A stretch of 35,275 nt of DNA from Bacteroidota bacterium (GTDB lineage: Bacteria > Bacteroidota > Bacteroidia > AKYH767-A > 2013-40CM-41-45), in assembly GCA_026391945.1 (NCBI GenBank), contig JAPLDA010000074.1, positions 1 to 35,275 on the forward strand, given 5' to 3'. A model generated the notes under the pieces. It saw only the letters and a list, made by a program, of their open reading frames with translations. It did not search any database and was not told the DNA's origin. Positions 22,470 to 33,012 of this stretch are shown here, piece after piece; positions within the stretch are counted from its first letter, which is position 1, and every line of letters starts with the position of its first letter. Made by a program: the position numbers and the translations under genes.

Positions 22470-23889
22470 TTATTTCGCGATCGCACTGATCATGTCCTTG
22501 ATATCAAAGATAATTTTTTCAGCGAGATTCTCTGCTGTTGTCTGCGACCGGCTTTCAGCATAAATACGGATGATCGGCTCCGTATTGCTTTTGCGGAGAT
22601 GAACCCATTCGTTGTCGAACTCGATCTTTACGCCATCCACGGTATTCACCGGTTGTTTTTTGTATTTGTTTTTGATCTCATCGAGGATGTGATCCACATC
22701 AATTTCCGGTGTGAGTTCAATTTTATTTTTAGAGATGAAATAATTCGGATACGTAGCCCGGAGCATGGAGACACTCTTTCCGTATTTTGCAAGATGCGTG
22801 AGGAACAGGGCGATACCAACCAAGGCATCGCGTCCATAATGCAATTCAGGATAAATGATTCCGCCGTTTCCTTCGCCGCCGATCACAGCATGGTTTGCCT
22901 TCATCGCTTCCACGACATTCACTTCGCCCACGGCCGATGCAAAATACTTCCCTCCTGCTTTTTCAGTCACATCACGCAGCGCCCTCGTGGACGACATGTT
23001 GGAAACCGTATTGCCTTTTTTTGTCTTCAGAATATAATCAGCAACGGCAACGAGCGTGTATTCTTCCCCGAACATTTCCCCGTCTTCACACACAAAAGCC
23101 AGCCGGTCCACATCCGGATCAACGGCGATGCCGAGGTGAGCGTTTTTCTTTTTCACTTCTTTCGAAAGATCACCAAGATGTTCAACCAAGATGTTCAGGA
23201 AGCGGCTCCGGGTTATGCGGAAACTGTCCGTTGGGAATGCAATACAGTTCGGTGATTTCCTCCACGCCGAGCGCTCTCAGCAAAGCGGGAACAGCGATGC
23301 CGCCAGTTGAATTCACGGCATCCACGACGATTTTAAAATTTTTTTCTTTGATCGCTTTCACATCCACCAAAGGAAGAGCTACGACTTTGTCGATATGTTT
23401 CTGAAGATAATCCGGTGCCGTGAGGTATTTGCCGAGTTTGTTCACATCAGCAAAAGAGAACGATTCTTGAAAAGCGATTTTCAACACCTCTTCTCCGTCT
23501 TTTGCTGAAATAAATTCACCGTACTGGTTGAGCAGTTTCAACGCATTCCATTGTTTGGGATTGTGACTGGCAGTGATGATGATTCCTCCATCAGCCTTAA
23601 AATCGGCTACTGCAAGTTCAACTGTTGGTGTGGTGGACAGACCGAGATACACCACGTCCACACCCATTCCTTTCAACGTACCTGCTACGAGGTTCTGAAC
23701 CATCTCACCGGAGATTCTTGCATCGCGGCCGATGACAATAGATGTCCGTGCATTTTTCCGCGTACTGTTTTTCATCACCCACGTTCCGAAAGCAGCCGTA
23801 AACTTCACAATATCGGGCGGAGTGAGGTTGTCACCGCTTTTCCCCCCGATAGTCCCCCTGATTCCTGAAATAGATTTAATAAGTGCCAC
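22470..23889 (-). pseudogene. glmM: phosphoglucosamine mutase/phosphohexomutase gene, split by a 13-bp tandem duplication
   Basis: Two overlapping frames together make one alpha-D-phosphohexomutase. The first part (23889-23182, 235 residues) has MALIKSISGIRGTIGG and the active-site Ser108 in TASHNPKQWNALK, and ends PLPEHLG-stop. The second part (from 23189 if it uses the ATG there) continues DLSKEV, then the Mg-binding DPDVDRLAF, GEGNGG (sugar loop) and RKSNTEPIIRIYAES (phosphate loop). A 13-bp unit occurs twice in tandem at 23172-23197; removing one copy restores a single frame of 468 residues. GEGNGG rather than GEQSGH leaves GlmM, PGM or PMM activity open. I chose the GTG start at 23889 because the TATCTTTG box lies between it and the upstream ATG. 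It is broken as read, by a real mutation, a reversible switch or an assembly error. Confidence 0.85.
23172..23197. repeat. 13-bp tandem duplication inside the phosphohexomutase gene
   Basis: ACCAAGATGTTCA is present twice head-to-tail (23172-23184 and 23185-23197) with no mismatch. The unit length is not a multiple of three, so it shifts the frame. The protein pieces on either side both read EHLG, the expected sign of a recent duplication in coding sequence. Confidence 0.95.
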
Positions 23890-23915
23890 AACTGTTGCTT
23901 TTGAATTTGCGGATG

Positions 23916-23923
23916 CAAAGATA
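23916..23923 (-). promoter_or_regulatory. Bacteroidota -7 box for the phosphohexomutase gene
   Basis: On the minus strand this reads TATCTTTG, an exact TAnnTTTG. Transcription would start about 20 nt before the GTG at 23889 and downstream of the ATG at 23937, which favours the GTG start. A -33 TTG at good spacing is not visible. Confidence 0.55.
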
Positions 23924-24068
23924 ATCGGTTTTACCAATTCTGCAGCAGCAGTGAAAGAGGATCGTTTTCATGCATCAGGTTTCACATTCGCTCGAGCCCA
24001 TATTCAAATACCTGCCAGCCGAAAAATTTTCGAACTTAGGGCGACGACAACAGTGAATCAAAAAATAA

Positions 24069-24185: not shown

Positions 24186-27100
24186 ATGAAACTGATCTTC
24201 AAACTGCTTATTCTTTCCGGTACAATCTTACTACTGAATCAAAAATTCACGTATGCGCAGGACACGATTCATGTTCAGTGTTTTACTTATGGCTCTTCAA
24301 CTGATTCTTCCATTGTATTTCCATACGATACGGTGAGGATTCAAAAAATATTGATGAACTACAAACTCCGCTGTCCTTATACCACGCAGTGCGGCGAATG
24401 GGATTACCTGATGTACACCTACCTGTTTCAACCGACGGGAAGATTTGACTCGGTGATGCATACGTATCCGAGTTATGTTGTAAACGGATCAAGCCCGGCA
24501 TCCTATTCATTCATGAATACGCCATCGTACAGCTATCATCCGTATTTTGAAAATCATGTTGTGCAGGACAGCATCATTTCATTCGACTCCACTTTGGTTG
24601 CAGCGAATACCATCAGCATGAACCATCCGTTGAATGCTGCGATTCCGGTTTGCCGCTCGCAGTACCTGTGGAAAGCAGTTGAATTAACCGCAGCCGGTTT
24701 ATCGGCAGGAAACATCACCGGTTTAAGACTGAATGTTCTTTCGCCGGGAAGCGAATTGAAACACCTGGTCATCCGCATCAAAGCGACTACGCGCGATACG
24801 ATCACAATTCTTGGATATGAAAGCACGGGCTTCATAACGGTGTATGACAGGAATACGACCTTCACTCCGGGTGGATGGAACCCGGTTGAATTCACCGGCG
24901 CATTTCTTTGGGACGGAGTTTCGAACCTCGCCGTTGATATCAGCTACGGCAACGATGGCAACGGAACTTCCACCTCCCTTTCAGGAAGCAACAGCGGGTT
25001 TCAGTCCGGCATCACCACTGCCAATGAAGACCGGAGTTTTTTCTTCCAGGGAACCGATAACATTTCTGTACCATCACAGCCATTCGGAAACCTCGACTCC
25101 AATGTCACCATCAGTTTCTGGGCAAACGGGAACCCACTTTTCCAGCCGCAGAATCAATCCATCTTTGAAGGCGTTGATTCGCTGAACCGTCGTGTTTTGA
25201 ACTGCCATCTTCCATGGAGCGATGGCGTGGTGTACTGGGATGCCGGGAATTCCGGAACCACAGCTTACGACAGGCTGAGCAAACAAGCCACCAGTCCTGA
25301 CTTTGAAGGGAACTGGGTTCATTGGGCTTTCACCAAAAATGTGAAGTCAGGAAGGATGAAAATTTACAAGAACGGTGCTTCCTTTATCCAGGCCACTAAC
25401 AAACGGAAGCTGATGAAAGGCATTAAAAAATTCCGCATCGGCTCCGGTGCAAATGGTACAAGCAACTACGATGGAAACATCGATGAGTTTGCTGTTTTTA
25501 ATACGGAAGTGGATGCCGCTACGATCAAAGACTGGATGAATAAAAAAATGGACAGTTCCCATCCATATTATTCCAACCTCCTCCTCTATTATACCTGTGA
25601 TAACAATTCGCTCACGGCGGCTTCCGATTCTGCTCCGGGAAATAATAATGGTTTGTTGTTCGGAGTTCCTGTGAGCAGTTTGTACACACCAACTTCCGTA
25701 TTCAAAGACCTGATGAATACGGATGAGCGACCTGATGTAATTTTTGAACAGGGTATTTATTTCTCACACGTGGACTCTGTCATGTTGGTAGATTCAACCG
25801 TAAATGCTCCCGTTACCATGGTCTATTTCAGCGACACATTGAACCCGACCGTACCAACGGATTCCCAACTGGTGTACCCGGTTTACTATAATCAATATGT
25901 ATATGATGCAGCCGGGCATGCCATCGATTCCGCTTTTGTGACACCCGATTCTGTGATCACACTCTATAATACTCATACCTGGGATCCGCCTTATGCTGTG
26001 CAAAACAGGTATGAACTCGGCAGGTATATAACACCGTATGGAAACGGGCTGAGCCTCGGCAACGGTTTCAACTGGGTATATGATGTGAGTGATTACCGGA
26101 CGTTGCTGCATGATACCGTTCACCTGAAATCCTATAACCAGCAGGAGTTGCTGGATCTTTCCTTTGATATGATCAAAGGAATTCCTCCGCGCGACCCGAT
26201 CAGCGTTCAAAACATTTACCCAGGAGGAGATTTTGTTTACGGCTCTGCAGGCAACCCGATTGAAAATCATTTCCCTCCGAAGAACATCTACATTGATTCC
26301 TCCGCACTAAACACACGGATCAAATACAGAACGACAGGACATGGAGAAGACGGAAATAACTGTGACGAATTTTGTCCGAAGATGCAGTACATCAATGTAA
26401 ACAGCATTCAGCGTTTCAGCCAGCTGGTCTGGAAAGACGATTGTGCGTTGAACCCTGTCTATCCCCAGGGAGGAACCTGGGTTTATGCACGCGCCAACTG
26501 GTGCCCGGGCGATGATGTTCCGACTTTCGATTACGAACTCACTCCTTATGCAACTCCCGGCGACAGTGTTTTGATTGATGTCAACTTCCAGCCTTATACA
26601 CTTGCATCCGGCGGATCAAATCCTCATTGCGTGGTGGAAACACAACTGATCGAATACGGAGCGCCGAACTTCACATTGGATGCAGCAGTGTATGACATCA
26701 AATCACCAAGCGACCAGCAAATGTATTTGCGACACAACCCGATCTGCAACAACCCGCTCGTCACCATTCAAAATACAGGATCAACAACCTTGACAAGCCT
26801 CACGATTACATACGGACAAGTCGGGGCTTCGCTCAGTACATTCAACTGGACAGGCAGCCTCACCCCGATGAAGAAAACTGATGTTCAGCTTGGCAACGTC
26901 AACTGGAATGCTGCCGGAAACCAATTCATCGTTACGGTGAGCAATCCGAATGGAGGAACCGATCAGTATGCCAATAACAATACGATGACGACCACGTTCG
27001 GCATTCCGCCGCAATTCGAAAATGCACTCATTTTTGAATTGCAGACCAACAACGAATCCTATCAGAATGCTTACACCCTGAAAGATGACCAGGGAAACGT

Positions 27101-27617
27101 GGTGTTCTCGCGAAGCAGTCTTACCGACAACACGCTGTATGAAGACACGATGTACCTTCCTTCGGGATGTTATGAGTTCAGGTTGACGGATTCAGGAGAC
27201 GACGGACTTACATTCTGGGCAAATCCCCCGGGCGGCGCGGGTTCCATGAAAATAAAAAGAGCTTCCGACGGAGCAGCGCTGAAAAGTTTCGGTTCTGATT
27301 TCGGAGCAGAGATTTACCAGCAGTTCACAGTAGGTTACATGGTGGGAATTGAAAACTCGAAAGCGGTGAATGACGTGCGTGTTTATCCGAATCCATCCAC
27401 GGGAAAAGTCAACTTCGATCTGAATTTCAGCAGCCGGCAGAATGCAACCATTGAATTGTTCAATGTAACCGGAGGCAAAGTGTACGCTGAAAGTGCAGAG
27501 CACATCATTTCAAAAAGAATAACGGCTGATTTATCTTTCCTCCGTTCAGGAATCTATTTTGTAAAAATCAAAACGGATGAACATGTGTATTATGAGAAGG
27601 TGGTGATGGGGCGGTGA
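24186..27617 (+). CDS. secreted PNGase F-like protein with LamG insertion and T9SS type-A sorting domain
   Basis: This 1143-residue exported protein has a signal peptide (about 1-25, ending TYAQ). Peptide-N-glycosidase F similarity begins with FPYDTVRIQKIL and CPYTTQCGEWDYLMYTYL (Asp73 matches catalytic Asp60 of PNGase F). It then breaks off and resumes at about 609 with ELGRYITPYG, YDVSDYRTLL, TGHGEDGNNCDEFCPK (Glu728 matches Glu206) and GTWVYARANWCPGDD. Between lie about 520 residues with a LamG/concanavalin-like domain (about 285-470). The position equivalent to Glu118 is Gln652 by eye. After the glycosidase part come a CARDB-like region, another beta domain and a type-A sorting domain from VRVYPNPSTGKVNFDL. 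PNGase F removes N-glycans from glycoproteins; activity here is uncertain because of the Gln. Confidence 0.85.
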   Translation: MKLIFKLLILSGTILLLNQKFTYAQDTIHVQCFTYGSSTDSSIVFPYDTVRIQKILMNYKLRCPYTTQCGEWDYLMYTYLFQPTGRFDSVMHTYPSYVVNGSSPASYSFMNTPSYSYHPYFENHVVQDSIISFDSTLVAANTISMNHPLNAAIPVCRSQYLWKAVELTAAGLSAGNITGLRLNVLSPGSELKHLVIRIKATTRDTITILGYESTGFITVYDRNTTFTPGGWNPVEFTGAFLWDGVSNLAVDISYGNDGNGTSTSLSGSNSGFQSGITTANEDRSFFFQGTDNISVPSQPFGNLDSNVTISFWANGNPLFQPQNQSIFEGVDSLNRRVLNCHLPWSDGVVYWDAGNSGTTAYDRLSKQATSPDFEGNWVHWAFTKNVKSGRMKIYKNGASFIQATNKRKLMKGIKKFRIGSGANGTSNYDGNIDEFAVFNTEVDAATIKDWMNKKMDSSHPYYSNLLLYYTCDNNSLTAASDSAPGNNNGLLFGVPVSSLYTPTSVFKDLMNTDERPDVIFEQGIYFSHVDSVMLVDSTVNAPVTMVYFSDTLNPTVPTDSQLVYPVYYNQYVYDAAGHAIDSAFVTPDSVITLYNTHTWDPPYAVQNRYELGRYITPYGNGLSLGNGFNWVYDVSDYRTLLHDTVHLKSYNQQELLDLSFDMIKGIPPRDPISVQNIYPGGDFVYGSAGNPIENHFPPKNIYIDSSALNTRIKYRTTGHGEDGNNCDEFCPKMQYINVNSIQRFSQLVWKDDCALNPVYPQGGTWVYARANWCPGDDVPTFDYELTPYATPGDSVLIDVNFQPYTLASGGSNPHCVVETQLIEYGAPNFTLDAAVYDIKSPSDQQMYLRHNPICNNPLVTIQNTGSTTLTSLTITYGQVGASLSTFNWTGSLTPMKKTDVQLGNVNWNAAGNQFIVTVSNPNGGTDQYANNNTMTTTFGIPPQFENALIFELQTNNESYQNAYTLKDDQGNVVFSRSSLTDNTLYEDTMYLPSGCYEFRLTDSGDDGLTFWANPPGGAGSMKIKRASDGAALKSFGSDFGAEIYQQFTVGYMVGIENSKAVNDVRVYPNPSTGKVNFDLNFSSRQNATIELFNVTGGKVYAESAEHIISKRITADLSFLRSGIYFVKIKTDEHVYYEKVVMGR

Positions 27618-27993: not shown

Positions 27994-30900
27994 ATGAAAA
28001 GATTTATTTTTATTGCAGGTCTGCTTCTTTCAGTTTCCCTGTCGTCTTCTGCCTCCCACCTGATGGGTGGTTCACTTACGTATGAATATCTTGGTTTTAA
28101 TTCAAGCAATCAAACCAACAAGTTCCTTATTAAACTTCAGCTATTCAGGAATTGCGACACTTCTACCACTCCGCTTCCTGCTCAGCTTGCCAATTCTTAT
28201 CAACTGGGAATTTATCCGCAGGATACAACGAATCCGAATGCCGATAAAATATTGTACAACTCCTACACTATGGGCATGGCTCCCGGATTCCCTCAGTATG
28301 TGAACCCACCATCTCCAGGTGGTGCGTGCAGTTTCAGCACGACGGTATGCGTTCAGGAAGGTGTTTACCAGGACACGGTTAACATACCGTCGAGTGCGGG
28401 TGGATATCATTTGCTGATTGAATTGTGTTGCCGGAACTACAACATCCTTAACCTCGCCAATGTTCAGCAGCCGCCGGTAGGAACCGGGGTTGGTCAAACC
28501 TATTATGCCTTTATTCCTCCCAACCTTATCATTAACAGTTCCCCTCAGTTCAATGATGTACCTGTTCCGTTTATCTGTACCAGCGACACAACTTCACTTG
28601 TTAATACTGCAACCGATCCTGATGGCGACAGCCTTGCTTATTCATTTGTCACACCTTATAATTCATACACCACCAACGCAACACCGAACCCGACGTTTAC
28701 CATTACGATGCCGATACCGGATGTAACCTATCTCACCGGGTTTAGCCTTGCACAACCTTTTGGCGCCGGCGGTTACGCATTCATCGATTCCATCACCGGT
28801 CTTACTCAATACCACATTCCGACAATAGGTAACTATGTTGTATGCGTGGAAATACGGGAATACAGAAATGGTGTTCTCTTATCAACCACACGGCGCGATC
28901 TTCAGCTCATTGCCATTGCCTGTAACCCGAATCCTCCTCCTGTTTTATCTACAACAGGCGGAAGCGGAATTACTACTTATAATATCACCGAAGGACAAAC
29001 ACTTTGTTTTCCCGTTACCATGGTGGATCCGAATGGTGACAGTGTATTTGTTCATGCAAGCGGAAGCCTCTTTGATCCATTGCAGGTAAATCCTGCCGCC
29101 ACTCTTCCGAATGCAGCAGGTGATTCCATTGTAACGAGCCAGTTCTGCTGGACTACCGGTTGCGGACAGGGAAGATCGGCTCCTTATCAGTTTTCAGAAA
29201 GCGCACTCGATGATGGTTGTCCGCCGAAAATCACCAACGTCGTGTATTCCATTTATGTTCATCCGTTCGCCGGGCCAACCGTGATTAACGGGCCTGATTC
29301 TGTCTGCAACCAGCAGGCATCTGTCGCATACAACGTAGCAAGTGTATCAGGGATAACATACCATTGGATGATCGCAAACGGAACACAGGCATCGGGCGGA
29401 AATTCTTCCAACATCACGGTGAACTGGGGAAATTCCACCAGCGGAATTGTTTCCGTGTATGCCGTGAGCCAGTATGGCTGTACACGCGATACCATTCATA
29501 AAAATGTGGTGCTGAAACCGCTTCCTGTGGCCGATGCCGGCGTTGATTCCGTTTCTTTTTGCTCCGGACAAAATGCGTTGATTGGTGTTTCGCCAACATC
29601 CGGTTACACGTACTCATGGAATCCGACAGCAGGACTTGATACATCCACCATTTCCAACCCAACTGTTTCGCTTACGAATGCGACCACCAACCCGGTCACG
29701 CATCCTTATACCGTGACTGCCACTTTAAATGGTTGTTCCACTACGGATAACGTTGCCGTGATCGTAAAACCTTTACCGGTTTCGAATGCCGGAAACGACC
29801 GTGCAGTTTGTTCAGGCGATACCGTTCATCTTGGTACGACAAGCACTTCGGGATATATTTATTCGTGGACGCCATCATCCGGACTTGACAACACAGCCAT
29901 TTCAAACCCAACTGTGATTGTTTCCAACTCAACTTCATCAGCTGATACACTTACTTATTACCTCACCAACAACCTGAACGGATGCTTTACGGGCGACACC
30001 GTGCATGTGATTGTGAATCCTCTTCCAATTGTTGTTGCATCCGTGAACCCTGACACCATTTGCCAGTTGCAAACATCTTCTCTCCAGGGAACAGGTGCGA
30101 ATACATACAACTGGGCGAACATTCTTACACCGGGAACTTCCATCGGAACTACGAACCCATTAACAGTTTCTCCATCCATTCCGACCACTTACATTCTTAC
30201 CGGGACAGCTTCTTTGGTCGGAACATCGTGCATCAACAGGGATACTGTTTCCTTATTCGTAAAACCACTGCCTGTTTCAAATGCAGGAAGCGATCATTAT
30301 GTATGCTCAGGCGATACGGTAAATCTTGGTGTTGCTGCCACTTCCGGTTACACGTATCAATGGACGCCATCGGCGGGATTAAACAACAGCACAGTTTCAG
30401 ATCCGTTTGTCATTGTTGCAAATGCAACTTCTGCGGCTGACACGTTGAACTATACCGTAACCTCAACACTCAATGGATGTTCGACAACGGATGCGGTGAA
30501 AATCATCATCAATCCGTTGCCAATTGTGCAGGCCACTGCAACACCTGATACCGTTTGCCAGGGACAAACCGCCACACTCATTGGTGCAGGCGCGAACACA
30601 TACGACTGGGCAAATGCCCTGACGCCATCCGTTTCTATCGGAACCGGAAGTTCTCTTCCAGTGAACCCGACCATCGTCACTGTCTATATTGTAACCGGAA
30701 CAGCAAACCTCATCGGAACATCGTGTATCAACAAAGACACGGTTACCGTTTACGGAAGCCTGCTTCCGAATGTCGTTGCTACCGCCAGTCCTGACAGCGT
30801 TTGCGCGGGATCATCATCTACACTTACAGCAGTCGGCGGATTGTCTTACACCTGGGCTGCACTAACGGCTCCGAATGTGATTGTCGGCAGCAATCCAACA

Positions 30901-33012
30901 TTGACCATTACTCCAACAGCCACGGTTTCTTACATCACCACCGGCGTCAATTCATTCGGATGTATCAATAAAGATACGGTGACAGTCGTGTACAACCCTG
31001 TTCCGTTGGCCGATTCGATTTATGGAACTACTTCTTTGTGCCCGGGAGTAACAGGAGTTGGTTACCTCGCACTTCCTTATACAGCAACATCCACGTATCA
31101 TTGGATGATTCAAAGCGGAACGATTGCAAGCGGACAGGGAACAGACACCGTTTTTGCCAATTGGGATTCGTTAAGCGGACCGGGATTCATCAGTGTGATT
31201 GAGACCACTGACCGTGGTTGTATTTCGGATACCGTTTTACTGCCCGTCAACATCAATTTAATACTCACACCACACGCACCATTCGGTATCAACCCGATCT
31301 GTGAAGAGAACGCCGATTCATCCGTTTACAATACTTTTTTCACTCCCGGTTCGGTTTATACCTGGGACATTGTTTACGGTACAATTTTAAGTGGTAATGG
31401 AACCAACAACGTCGTTGTGAACTGGGATTCGACTGGAATTAATATGGGTGTCATCTGGTATGTTGAACACAGCACCACAATTGATACGGTATGTTATGGA
31501 AGATCCGATACTTTGTTTGTAACGATTCACCCGCGGCCGGTTACTTCCCCGATCCTCGGAACGTATGCACTGTGTGCTTATGATACGGGAAACCTTTACA
31601 TGGTAAACCCTTCATCGGGTTCAACGTTTGCATGGACAACCACCAGCGGGAGCATTGCATCAGGAAACGGAACCAATCTCATTCACCTCAACTGGTCGGC
31701 TGCCGGAACGGAAACCATCACGGTGGTGGAGACAAGCAGTTTTGGTTGCCTCGGTTTCCCTGTGGATACGGATGTACTTGTACGACCACTGCCGAATGCA
31801 TACGCGGGACCGGATACTTCCATTTGTTTTGGCGACAGCACGCTTCTGCAGGCAACCGGCGGAATCATTTATCACTGGACGCCTTCGCTGGGACTGAGCA
31901 GCAATGCCATCAGCAACCCGTATGCACACCCCGGATCATCCTCTCAATACAATGTGCTGGTCACCGATAATTTCAACTGTAAAAACACCGACTCTGTTTT
32001 AGTGACCGTTCATACGTTACCGAATGCCAATGCAGGATCGAACGTAGCCATTTGTTTCGGACACAATACAACACTGAATGCAAGTGGTGGCACGCAATAC
32101 CTTTGGATCCCCGGAACAGGGTTGAGTGATTCAACCATCTTTAATCCTGTTGCATCACCGGCTGCAAGCATTCAATATTATGTAATCGTCACCGATAACA
32201 ATACCTGTCACCAGATCGACAGCGTGATTGTCACCGTTCATTCTTTGCCGGTTGTGGATGCCGGACCGGATACTATTATCTGCAACGGATCCGGAACCCA
32301 ATTGCAGGCTACCGGCGGAAACACGTATCACTGGTCGCCTTCGGTTGGACTGAGCAATGTAAACATTTCCAATCCTGTCGCATCGCCTGCTGATTCGACC
32401 ACGTACACGGTGACGGTTACAGATGCAAACAACTGTCAGAACACCGACCAGGTGTTTGTGGATGTGAATGCCATGCCTCGGGCAGCATTCAATGCCTTGT
32501 ATGATCCGAGTTGCGACGGGCTGAGAGCAAAACTCGTTGACCTCAGCACCAATGAGCTGAATTCTGAATGGTTGTACGGCGACGGTACTTCACAATCTGT
32601 TTCCAATCCGATTCCGAATGATACGATGGTTCATATTTATCCTTACGGAACCACCGGCATCATCAGCCTCATCGCCATCAATAATTTCTGTCGCGATACG
32701 ATCACTGTTGAGAAACCGGACATTGGTATCGGAACTGCACTCGATTCACTCGCCAACGTATTTTCTCCGAACGGCGACGGCATGAACGATTGTTTCCAGG
32801 TAACTCCTACCGGCGGGTTGAATGACTGTGCCTTCATCACCATCTTCAACCGGTGGGGAAAAGTTGTTTTCGAAGGTGACACGCAGCATCGTTGCTGGGA
32901 CGGAAAAAATGACAGCGGAACTGAATGCGATGAAGGAGTTTATTTCTTCATTGTAAAAATCGGCAATGCAACGAAGAACGGTACGGTGCAGTTGATCCGG
33001 AAAAAACTATAA
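27994..33012 (+). CDS. giant PKD/Ig-like repeat surface protein with gliding-motility-type (T9SS type-B) C-terminal domain
   Basis: This 1672-residue exported protein has a signal peptide (about 1-20, ending SSSASH). An N-terminal region SHLMGGSLTYEYLG (about 21-340) follows that I know from many large Bacteroidota surface proteins. From about 430 it is a chain of PKD/Ig-like modules of 75-85 residues, each with an LPxxxAGxDxxxCxG start and Y-W-P-GL--ISNP core. Two adjacent modules repeat as a 165-residue pair (591-755 and 756-920), and three near-identical modules lie at about 1266-1489. The end, from ANVFSPNGDGMND (about 1588) to GTVQLIRKKL, is the gliding-motility-associated C-terminal (type-B) domain. 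Such proteins are exported by T9SS and act as adhesins or mobile surface fibres. Cys-rich pairs suggest disulfides. Confidence 0.9.
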   Translation: MKRFIFIAGLLLSVSLSSSASHLMGGSLTYEYLGFNSSNQTNKFLIKLQLFRNCDTSTTPLPAQLANSYQLGIYPQDTTNPNADKILYNSYTMGMAPGFPQYVNPPSPGGACSFSTTVCVQEGVYQDTVNIPSSAGGYHLLIELCCRNYNILNLANVQQPPVGTGVGQTYYAFIPPNLIINSSPQFNDVPVPFICTSDTTSLVNTATDPDGDSLAYSFVTPYNSYTTNATPNPTFTITMPIPDVTYLTGFSLAQPFGAGGYAFIDSITGLTQYHIPTIGNYVVCVEIREYRNGVLLSTTRRDLQLIAIACNPNPPPVLSTTGGSGITTYNITEGQTLCFPVTMVDPNGDSVFVHASGSLFDPLQVNPAATLPNAAGDSIVTSQFCWTTGCGQGRSAPYQFSESALDDGCPPKITNVVYSIYVHPFAGPTVINGPDSVCNQQASVAYNVASVSGITYHWMIANGTQASGGNSSNITVNWGNSTSGIVSVYAVSQYGCTRDTIHKNVVLKPLPVADAGVDSVSFCSGQNALIGVSPTSGYTYSWNPTAGLDTSTISNPTVSLTNATTNPVTHPYTVTATLNGCSTTDNVAVIVKPLPVSNAGNDRAVCSGDTVHLGTTSTSGYIYSWTPSSGLDNTAISNPTVIVSNSTSSADTLTYYLTNNLNGCFTGDTVHVIVNPLPIVVASVNPDTICQLQTSSLQGTGANTYNWANILTPGTSIGTTNPLTVSPSIPTTYILTGTASLVGTSCINRDTVSLFVKPLPVSNAGSDHYVCSGDTVNLGVAATSGYTYQWTPSAGLNNSTVSDPFVIVANATSAADTLNYTVTSTLNGCSTTDAVKIIINPLPIVQATATPDTVCQGQTATLIGAGANTYDWANALTPSVSIGTGSSLPVNPTIVTVYIVTGTANLIGTSCINKDTVTVYGSLLPNVVATASPDSVCAGSSSTLTAVGGLSYTWAALTAPNVIVGSNPTLTITPTATVSYITTGVNSFGCINKDTVTVVYNPVPLADSIYGTTSLCPGVTGVGYLALPYTATSTYHWMIQSGTIASGQGTDTVFANWDSLSGPGFISVIETTDRGCISDTVLLPVNINLILTPHAPFGINPICEENADSSVYNTFFTPGSVYTWDIVYGTILSGNGTNNVVVNWDSTGINMGVIWYVEHSTTIDTVCYGRSDTLFVTIHPRPVTSPILGTYALCAYDTGNLYMVNPSSGSTFAWTTTSGSIASGNGTNLIHLNWSAAGTETITVVETSSFGCLGFPVDTDVLVRPLPNAYAGPDTSICFGDSTLLQATGGIIYHWTPSLGLSSNAISNPYAHPGSSSQYNVLVTDNFNCKNTDSVLVTVHTLPNANAGSNVAICFGHNTTLNASGGTQYLWIPGTGLSDSTIFNPVASPAASIQYYVIVTDNNTCHQIDSVIVTVHSLPVVDAGPDTIICNGSGTQLQATGGNTYHWSPSVGLSNVNISNPVASPADSTTYTVTVTDANNCQNTDQVFVDVNAMPRAAFNALYDPSCDGLRAKLVDLSTNELNSEWLYGDGTSQSVSNPIPNDTMVHIYPYGTTGIISLIAINNFCRDTITVEKPDIGIGTALDSLANVFSPNGDGMNDCFQVTPTGGLNDCAFITIFNRWGKVVFEGDTQHRCWDGKNDSGTECDEGVYFFIVKIGNATKNGTVQLIRKKL
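29764..30753 (+). repeat. two-copy 495-bp internal repeat in the adhesin gene
   Basis: VKPLPVSNAG starts at residue 591 (29764) and again at 756 (30259), exactly 495 bp apart. Each unit holds the same two-module order: CSGDTV-LG...SGYTY-WTPS-GL, then NPLPIV, TICQxQT, GANTY-WANxLTP and GTSCINxDTV. The DNA copies are clearly diverged, so this is an old in-frame duplication of a module pair. Confidence 0.8.

What the first reader, a model, noticed from the sequence alone, without database searches (positions are those of the whole stretch)
24186..27617. LamG-containing block inserted inside the first domain of a PNGase F homologue
PNGase F has two adjacent eight-stranded domains. Here the segment matching PNGase F residues up to about 68 (ending after CGEWDYLMYTYL) and the segment that should follow at once (GRFITPYW in PNGase F, GRYITPYG here) are separated by about 520 residues that include a LamG/concanavalin-like domain. 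The catalytic domain is thus split in sequence and must fold around the insertion, or the insertion projects as a lectin arm. This could be a built-in glycan-recognition module on a secreted deglycosylase. The PNGase F comparison is from memory and by eye.
Basis: partly seen in the sequence, partly recalled or inferred. Interest (0 to 1): 0.75.

Follow-up and report, generated by a model that had tools for sequence, protein, structure and literature searches.

The report
Lectin-like block nested inside bacterial deglycosylase
A secreted bacterial relative of the sugar-removing enzyme PNGase F has a large lectin-like block spliced into the middle of its catalytic fold, actually an insert inside another insert, and natural relatives that lack one or both layers show that the enzyme fold does not need them.

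Summary
ORF 24186-27617 (1143 aa) is a type IX-secreted PNGase F homologue. Its catalytic sequence is interrupted between residues ~85 and ~607, at the tip of the beta-hairpin that follows the catalytic Asp (D73 = PNGase F D60). All six PNGase F cysteines, D60, E206 and the W-D-aromatic and His/Glu active-site signatures are conserved.

A ~110-aa module (M) occupies the hairpin in a sister clade of ~750-aa homologues with no LamG. In the window protein M is itself split: residues 82-123 and 530-602 match one M profile in order, E 8e-7 and 7e-18. The ~405-aa block between them is an unnamed beta-domain (X) plus LamG.

I found 46 LamG-carrying homologues in about 20 family-level groups. Within the same strongly supported clade lie forms with only M (129 aa), a bare ribbon (50 aa) and a clean 18-aa loop, so the block has been lost (or gained) more than once.

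Most likely this is an active PNGase whose LamG arm projects on a beta-ribbon from the hairpin. Binding to substrate glycan or host surface is inferred, not shown. I found no published description. New variant of a known kind, moderate interest.

The parts
24186..24257 (+). N-terminal hydrophobic segment, residues 1-24 (signal peptide, inferred)
   Evidence: sequence; modelled as helix 2-17
24258..24440 (+). PNGase catalytic domain, first piece, residues 25-85 (= PNGase F ~4-72)
   Evidence: phmmer and profile alignment to 1pnf; C63, C69, W72, D73 invariant in 42 homologues
24402..24404 (+). D73, equivalent of PNGase F catalytic D60
   Evidence: alignment; invariant
24441..24554 (+). Inserted module M, first piece, residues ~86-123
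   Evidence: mid129 profile positions 1-40 match residues 82-123, iE 8e-7
24555..25040 (+). Stalk strand (115-138) and unnamed beta-domain X (~140-285), start of the block nested inside M
   Evidence: no Pfam family; recurs in other proteins, including giant ones, of relatives; strands in model
25041..25685 (+). LamG / concanavalin-like domain, residues ~286-500
   Evidence: Pfam Laminin_G_3 288-447, 2.7e-14; present in all 42 long homologues; Foldseek matches to pentraxin and LamG structures
25686..25772 (+). End of nested block, residues ~501-529, with the start of the return stalk strand 518-539
   Evidence: model secondary structure
25773..25997 (+). Inserted module M, second piece, residues ~530-604
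   Evidence: mid129 profile positions 39-112 match residues 530-602, iE 6.9e-18
25998..26675 (+). PNGase catalytic domain, second piece, residues 605-830 (= PNGase F ~73-305; contains N-glycanase_C 700-796)
26145..26147 (+). E654, invariant Glu four residues after the E118-equivalent position (Y650); candidate replacement for E118
   Evidence: invariant in 42 of 42; alignment; role inferred
26340..26342 (+). H719, active-site His (= PNGase F W191; His in most family members)
   Evidence: active-site description in PMC12381499
26367..26369 (+). E728, equivalent of PNGase F E206
26676..27350 (+). C-terminal beta modules, residues ~831-1055
   Evidence: model strands; shared with homologues that lack the insert
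27381..27605 (+). Type IX secretion C-terminal sorting domain, residues 1066-1140
   Evidence: Pfam Por_Secre_tail 7.4e-17; NCBIfam TIGR04183

Best explanation
The protein is a secreted PNGase F-family amidase (N-glycan removal). The hairpin of its first jelly roll, just after the catalytic Asp, has been used as a docking point for added modules in two layers: a ~110-aa module M, and a ~405-aa block (unnamed domain X plus LamG) placed inside M. The catalytic double jelly roll folds from residues ~25-85 and ~605-830. The block leaves it through paired long strands as a projecting arm. The arm most likely serves as an accessory binding or tethering module that holds the enzyme on glycoprotein or glycan-rich surfaces; it is not part of the catalytic machinery. 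Shown: homology, split, nesting, conservation of active-site residues, natural forms without the block. Inferred: enzymatic activity, arm geometry, glycan binding.
For: Two-piece collinear match to PNGase F. D60, E206, W59 and all six Cys conserved. W-D-Y and His+Glu match the conserved superfamily active-site features of PMC12381499. The M profile, built from 17 LamG-free homologues, matches in two pieces on either side of the X+LamG block in most of the 46 long forms; best of 920 shuffled sequences 7.0 bits against 73 bits for the window. The tree places loops of 18, 50 and 129 aa inside the LamG clade, and the AU test rejects LamG forms as an exclusive clade. The sister homologue model superposes on whole PNGase F (345 columns, TM 0.74-0.76, E 2e-16) with the insertion site a single long hairpin. 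The block is better conserved (X 33%, LamG 38.5% pairwise) than M (28-29%), so it is probably under constraint. The host genome also encodes a GH92 family member and a second PNGase with two LamG domains fused N-terminally to an uninterrupted catalytic domain, a separate pairing of the same two domains. A T9SS tail is present.
Against: No activity or binding data exist. The position of E118 is Tyr here and Gly in most long forms, so the third catalytic carboxylate is not at the canonical place, although type II PNGases also have Gly there (PMC9522356). Model pTM is 0.52, so domain orientation is unsure, and coordinates could not be inspected, so no direct superposition of residues 25-85 + 605-830 was made. 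The direct Foldseek match of the window model to PNGase F covers only 242 columns (TM 0.55-0.58). LamG domains are often structural. No other glycan-degradation gene was found among the ten neighbouring ORFs scanned.
Confidence: 0.72

Rival explanations
1. The arm is a spacer or scaffold, not a lectin: X and LamG keep the catalytic module away from the cell surface or mediate protein-protein contacts, and do not recognise sugar.
For: X-like domains occur in giant (over 5000 aa) proteins of relatives, where structural roles are common; LamG is often a structural fold; natural homologues lack the block.
Against: LamG is the best conserved part of the insert; a paralogue in the same genome pairs LamG with PNGase in another topology, which suggests a shared binding need.
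Confidence: 0.35
2. The catalytic domain is a degenerate PNGase fold without amidase activity, used as a binding protein.
For: E118 is replaced by Tyr (Gly in most relatives) and W120 by Gln.
Against: D73, E728, H719, W72, W765, R769, W772 and E654 are invariant in 42 homologues. The D60 and E206 equivalents are essential in zebrafish Ngly2 (PMC12753239). Type II PNGases lack E118 and are active (PMC9522356).
Confidence: 0.12
3. Gene fusion or assembly artefact joining two unrelated genes.
For: The genome is a draft in 114 contigs, and a nearby gene carries a frame-breaking duplication.
Against: Single open frame and 45 homologues with the same junctions in other genomes, with full-length matches also in other classes of the phylum.
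Confidence: 0.01
4. M and the X+LamG block entered as one piece, and the LamG-free M of the sister clade is a remnant after loss, not an older layer.
For: The order of events depends on the root; the mid129 clade could descend from a LamG-bearing ancestor, and L038, inside the LamG clade, is M-only.
Against: In the mid129 clade all 17 members lack any trace of the block and have near-constant 127-129 aa spacing; M-first needs fewer events.
Confidence: 0.3

Closest known systems
PNGase F (Elizabethkingia meningoseptica, 1PNF) and the PNGase F superfamily (Pfam N-glycanase_N/C)
   Same: Double jelly-roll catalytic core, D60, E206, W59, six Cys, N-glycanase_C profile
   Different: ~520-aa nested insertion in the first jelly roll; E118 and W120 not conserved; T9SS tail and extra C-terminal modules
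PNGase F type II / PNGF-II (4R4X) and Phocaeicola massiliensis PNGase (7ZGN)
   Same: Loss of Glu at the E118 position
   Different: Their accessory bowl-like domain is N-terminal, not inserted
Group 1 Bacteroides PNGases (3KS7, 4QHB)
   Same: PNGase family with an insert, His in the active site
   Different: Their insert (~60 aa) lies between the two jelly rolls / after the F' strand (PMC8812541, PMC9522356), another site, with no LamG
Zebrafish Ngly2 (9LWG) and PNGaseL / PNGaseDo (PMC12381499)
   Same: PNGase core with accessory modules; PNGaseL and PNGaseDo carry T9SS tails
   Different: Accessory modules are described only N- or C-terminal to the catalytic module
Own-genome paralogue (contig C61, L084)
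   Same: LamG plus PNGase in one protein
   Different: Two LamG domains N-terminal to an uninterrupted catalytic domain (17-aa spacing)

Membership tests
PNGase F superfamily | N-glycanase_C profile match above curated cut-off | tested here: met
   70.8 bits against cut-off 25
PNGase F superfamily | N-glycanase_N profile match above cut-off | tested here: not met
   Absent in the window protein and in a copy without the insert; weak hits (best 0.0046) in 10 of 42 relatives. Uninterrupted homologues of this clade also miss the cut-off, so this reflects divergence. Homology of this part rests and on conserved Cys and catalytic residues
PNGase F superfamily | Catalytic Asp60 and Glu206 | tested here: met
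   D73 and E728, invariant in 42 of 42
PNGase F superfamily | Glu118 | tested here: not met
   Y650 here, Gly in most relatives; not universal in the family and so not defining
PNGase F superfamily | Double jelly-roll fold over both pieces | tested here: inconclusive
   Same strand pattern and order in the window model as in the sister model. The sister matches PNGase F over 345 columns, the window model over 242. No coordinates available
PNGase F superfamily | Amidase activity on N-glycoproteins | not testable with these tools
   needs the enzyme
LamG / concanavalin-like domain | Laminin_G_3 profile above cut-off | tested here: met
   54 bits against 27.6; all 42 relatives
LamG / concanavalin-like domain | Carbohydrate or ligand binding | not testable with these tools
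   needs a binding assay
T9SS cargo (type A sorting domain) | Por_Secre_tail at the C-terminus above cut-off | tested here: met
   61.9 bits against 27; about 150 such tails in the genome

The most novel reading that the evidence does not exclude
The hairpin after the catalytic Asp of PNGase F-type enzymes is a reusable plug-in site. Modules have been nested there in layers (M, then X+LamG inside M) and later lost in whole or in layers in natural lineages, leaving working enzymes. The LamG arm changes which glycoproteins the enzyme acts on, by recognising a second feature of the substrate or surface.
Probability: 0.3. Interest if true: 0.65.

Novelty: new variant of a known kind. Interest (0 to 1): 0.52.

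Why it matters
PNGase F is the standard reagent for removing N-glycans, and the relatives described in the papers read here carry accessory modules only at their ends. A widespread clade with a lectin-like block nested in the catalytic fold, plus natural relatives that lack each layer, gives a ready-made series (18, 50, 129 and ~540 aa at one site) to test how large insertions are tolerated in a jelly roll. It also tests whether a built-in arm changes substrate range. It could supply new deglycosylation reagents, and it shows how nested domain insertions arise and are undone.

Tried and rejected
Excising the insert and re-scanning for Pfam N-glycanase_N: no hit; uninterrupted relatives also fall below the cut-off, so the test is uninformative for this clade.

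Direct Foldseek match of the full model to PNGase F covered only 242 columns; replaced by modelling the natural short-loop sister L042. Coordinates of the models are not available in the Python box, so no superposition was made.

Artefact or gene fusion rejected: 45 homologues with the same junctions. Phage origin: no match in phage records; the named viral-fold matches are LamG / concanavalin-like or uncharacterised proteins.

Literature for this architecture: none found in the held library; the library lacks most subscription journals, so absence is weak. Nearby N-glycan utilisation genes: none among the ten neighbouring ORFs scanned.

Full report
Observation. The ORF at 24186-27617 encodes 1143 aa. 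Pfam finds N-glycanase_C (700-796, 1.3e-19), Laminin_G_3 (288-447, 2.7e-14) and a type IX secretion tail (1066-1140, 7.4e-17). phmmer against the PDB returns PNGase F as the best match in two collinear pieces, query 37-82 to chain 25-69 and query 608-807 to chain 75-285. A profile of 42 homologues strengthens this to 4e-37 with pieces 24-89 and 612-821. D73 and E728 are invariant in 42 of 42 long homologues.

Size of the interruption in the family. I collected homologues from 149 related genomes and a named genome collection, and measured the spacing from the catalytic Asp to the Gly of the G-R-Y-I-T-P-Y motif. PNGase F has 19. Uninterrupted homologues have 17-23 (24 rows with PNGase F). Two have 50, eighteen have 127-129, and 46 including the window have 526-547. 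All 42 long forms scanned carry both LamG and N-glycanase_C. Long forms occur in about 20 family-level groups, and full-length matches occur in genomes of other classes of the phylum.

The insert is nested. A profile HMM of the insert (117 positions) from the 17 LamG-free ~129-aa homologues of the sister clade was searched against the inserts of the long forms. In the window it matches in two pieces in order: profile 1-40 at residues 82-123 (iE 8e-7) and profile 39-112 at residues 530-602 (iE 6.9e-18). Most long forms show the same two-piece pattern at the same break; a few divergent ones match one piece only or weakly. The best of 920 shuffled inserts scored 7.0 bits against 73 for the window. 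So a ~110-aa module M sits in the catalytic hairpin, and the X+LamG block (~124-529) sits inside M. X (~140-285) matches no Pfam family. It recurs in other proteins of relatives, including frames over 5000 aa.

Evolution. A maximum-likelihood tree of the catalytic core with the insert left out groups the 46 long forms with four short ones: L038 (129, M only), L042 and L043 (50), and L073 (18), at 98/96 support. L073 lies deep inside, under branches at 100/98 and 100/97. Forcing the long forms to be an exclusive clade is rejected (delta lnL 167.5, p 9e-54). The block has therefore been lost (or gained) more than once. Loss is simplest, and L073 shows a clean return to a short loop. Whether M preceded the X+LamG block depends on the root and is not settled. 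The core is 48-52% identical pairwise, LamG 38.5%, X 33%, M 28-29%, so the block is better kept than the module around it.

Structure. The AlphaFold model of the window protein has mean pLDDT 84 and pTM 0.52: domains good, orientation unsure. In the 50-aa sister L042 (pLDDT 89, pTM 0.78) the site is simply two 23-24-residue strands with a tight turn, and this model matches PNGase F over ~345 columns with TM 0.74-0.76 and E 2e-16. The full window model matches only over 242 columns, as expected for a local aligner faced with a 520-residue gap. An uninterrupted homologue, L063, aligns to zebrafish Ngly2 in one stretch across the site.

Active site. The conserved superfamily features (PMC12381499) are an aromatic-Asp-aromatic/positive motif, and a His plus Glu from another loop. 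The window has W72-D73-Y74, H719 and E728. The E118 position is Tyr here and Gly in most long forms. [quoted passage not shown] E654, four residues on and invariant, is a candidate for that role (inference). In zebrafish Ngly2 the Asp and Glu equivalents were shown to be essential (PMC12753239). Activity is therefore likely but unproven, and tolerance of core alpha-1,3-fucose is a guess only.

Function of the arm. LamG domains bind sugars, calcium, proteins or nothing (general knowledge). What favours a binding role is conservation of LamG above its surroundings, secretion by T9SS, one GH92 family member in the genome, and a second PNGase in the same genome that carries two LamG domains in front of an uninterrupted catalytic domain. 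What speaks against an essential role is its absence in L073, L042, L043 and L038. I put a glycan- or surface-binding arm somewhat ahead of a pure spacer.

Novelty. PNGases described in the papers read here have accessory modules at their ends, or a ~60-aa insert between the two jelly rolls (PMC8812541, PMC9522356, PMC12381499). I found no description of an insertion in this hairpin, nor of nesting. The searchable library is incomplete. The catalytic family, LamG and T9SS tail are all known; the nested architecture and its removable layers are what is new.

Noticed in passing
window 22470-23937 (-), break near 23180-23205: A phosphoglucomutase/phosphomannomutase gene is split into two overlapping frames by a 13-base near-exact tandem duplication (GAACATCTTGGTT then GAACATCTTGGTG); a recent mutation or an assembly error.
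   Followed up: partly
L084 (own genome, contig C61 77500-83500): Second PNGase of the same genome: two LamG domains fused N-terminally to an uninterrupted PNGase core, a different solution to pairing the same domains.
   Followed up: partly
window 24555-25040; relatives G009:C10, G007:C18, G037:C174: Domain X (~125 aa, motif WDG.SN) is absent from Pfam but recurs, in places several copies per frame, in frames over 5000 aa of related genomes; a candidate new domain family.
   Followed up: partly
window 27994-33012 (+): The next gene downstream encodes a 1672-aa Ig/PKD-repeat protein with a CHU_C type IX sorting domain; relation to the PNGase unknown.
   Followed up: no
L028, L041, L048 and others, E206 region: In sub-clades of long forms the C204-C208 disulfide of PNGase F is missing or altered (CCEW, GEF), although the Glu is kept.
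   Followed up: no
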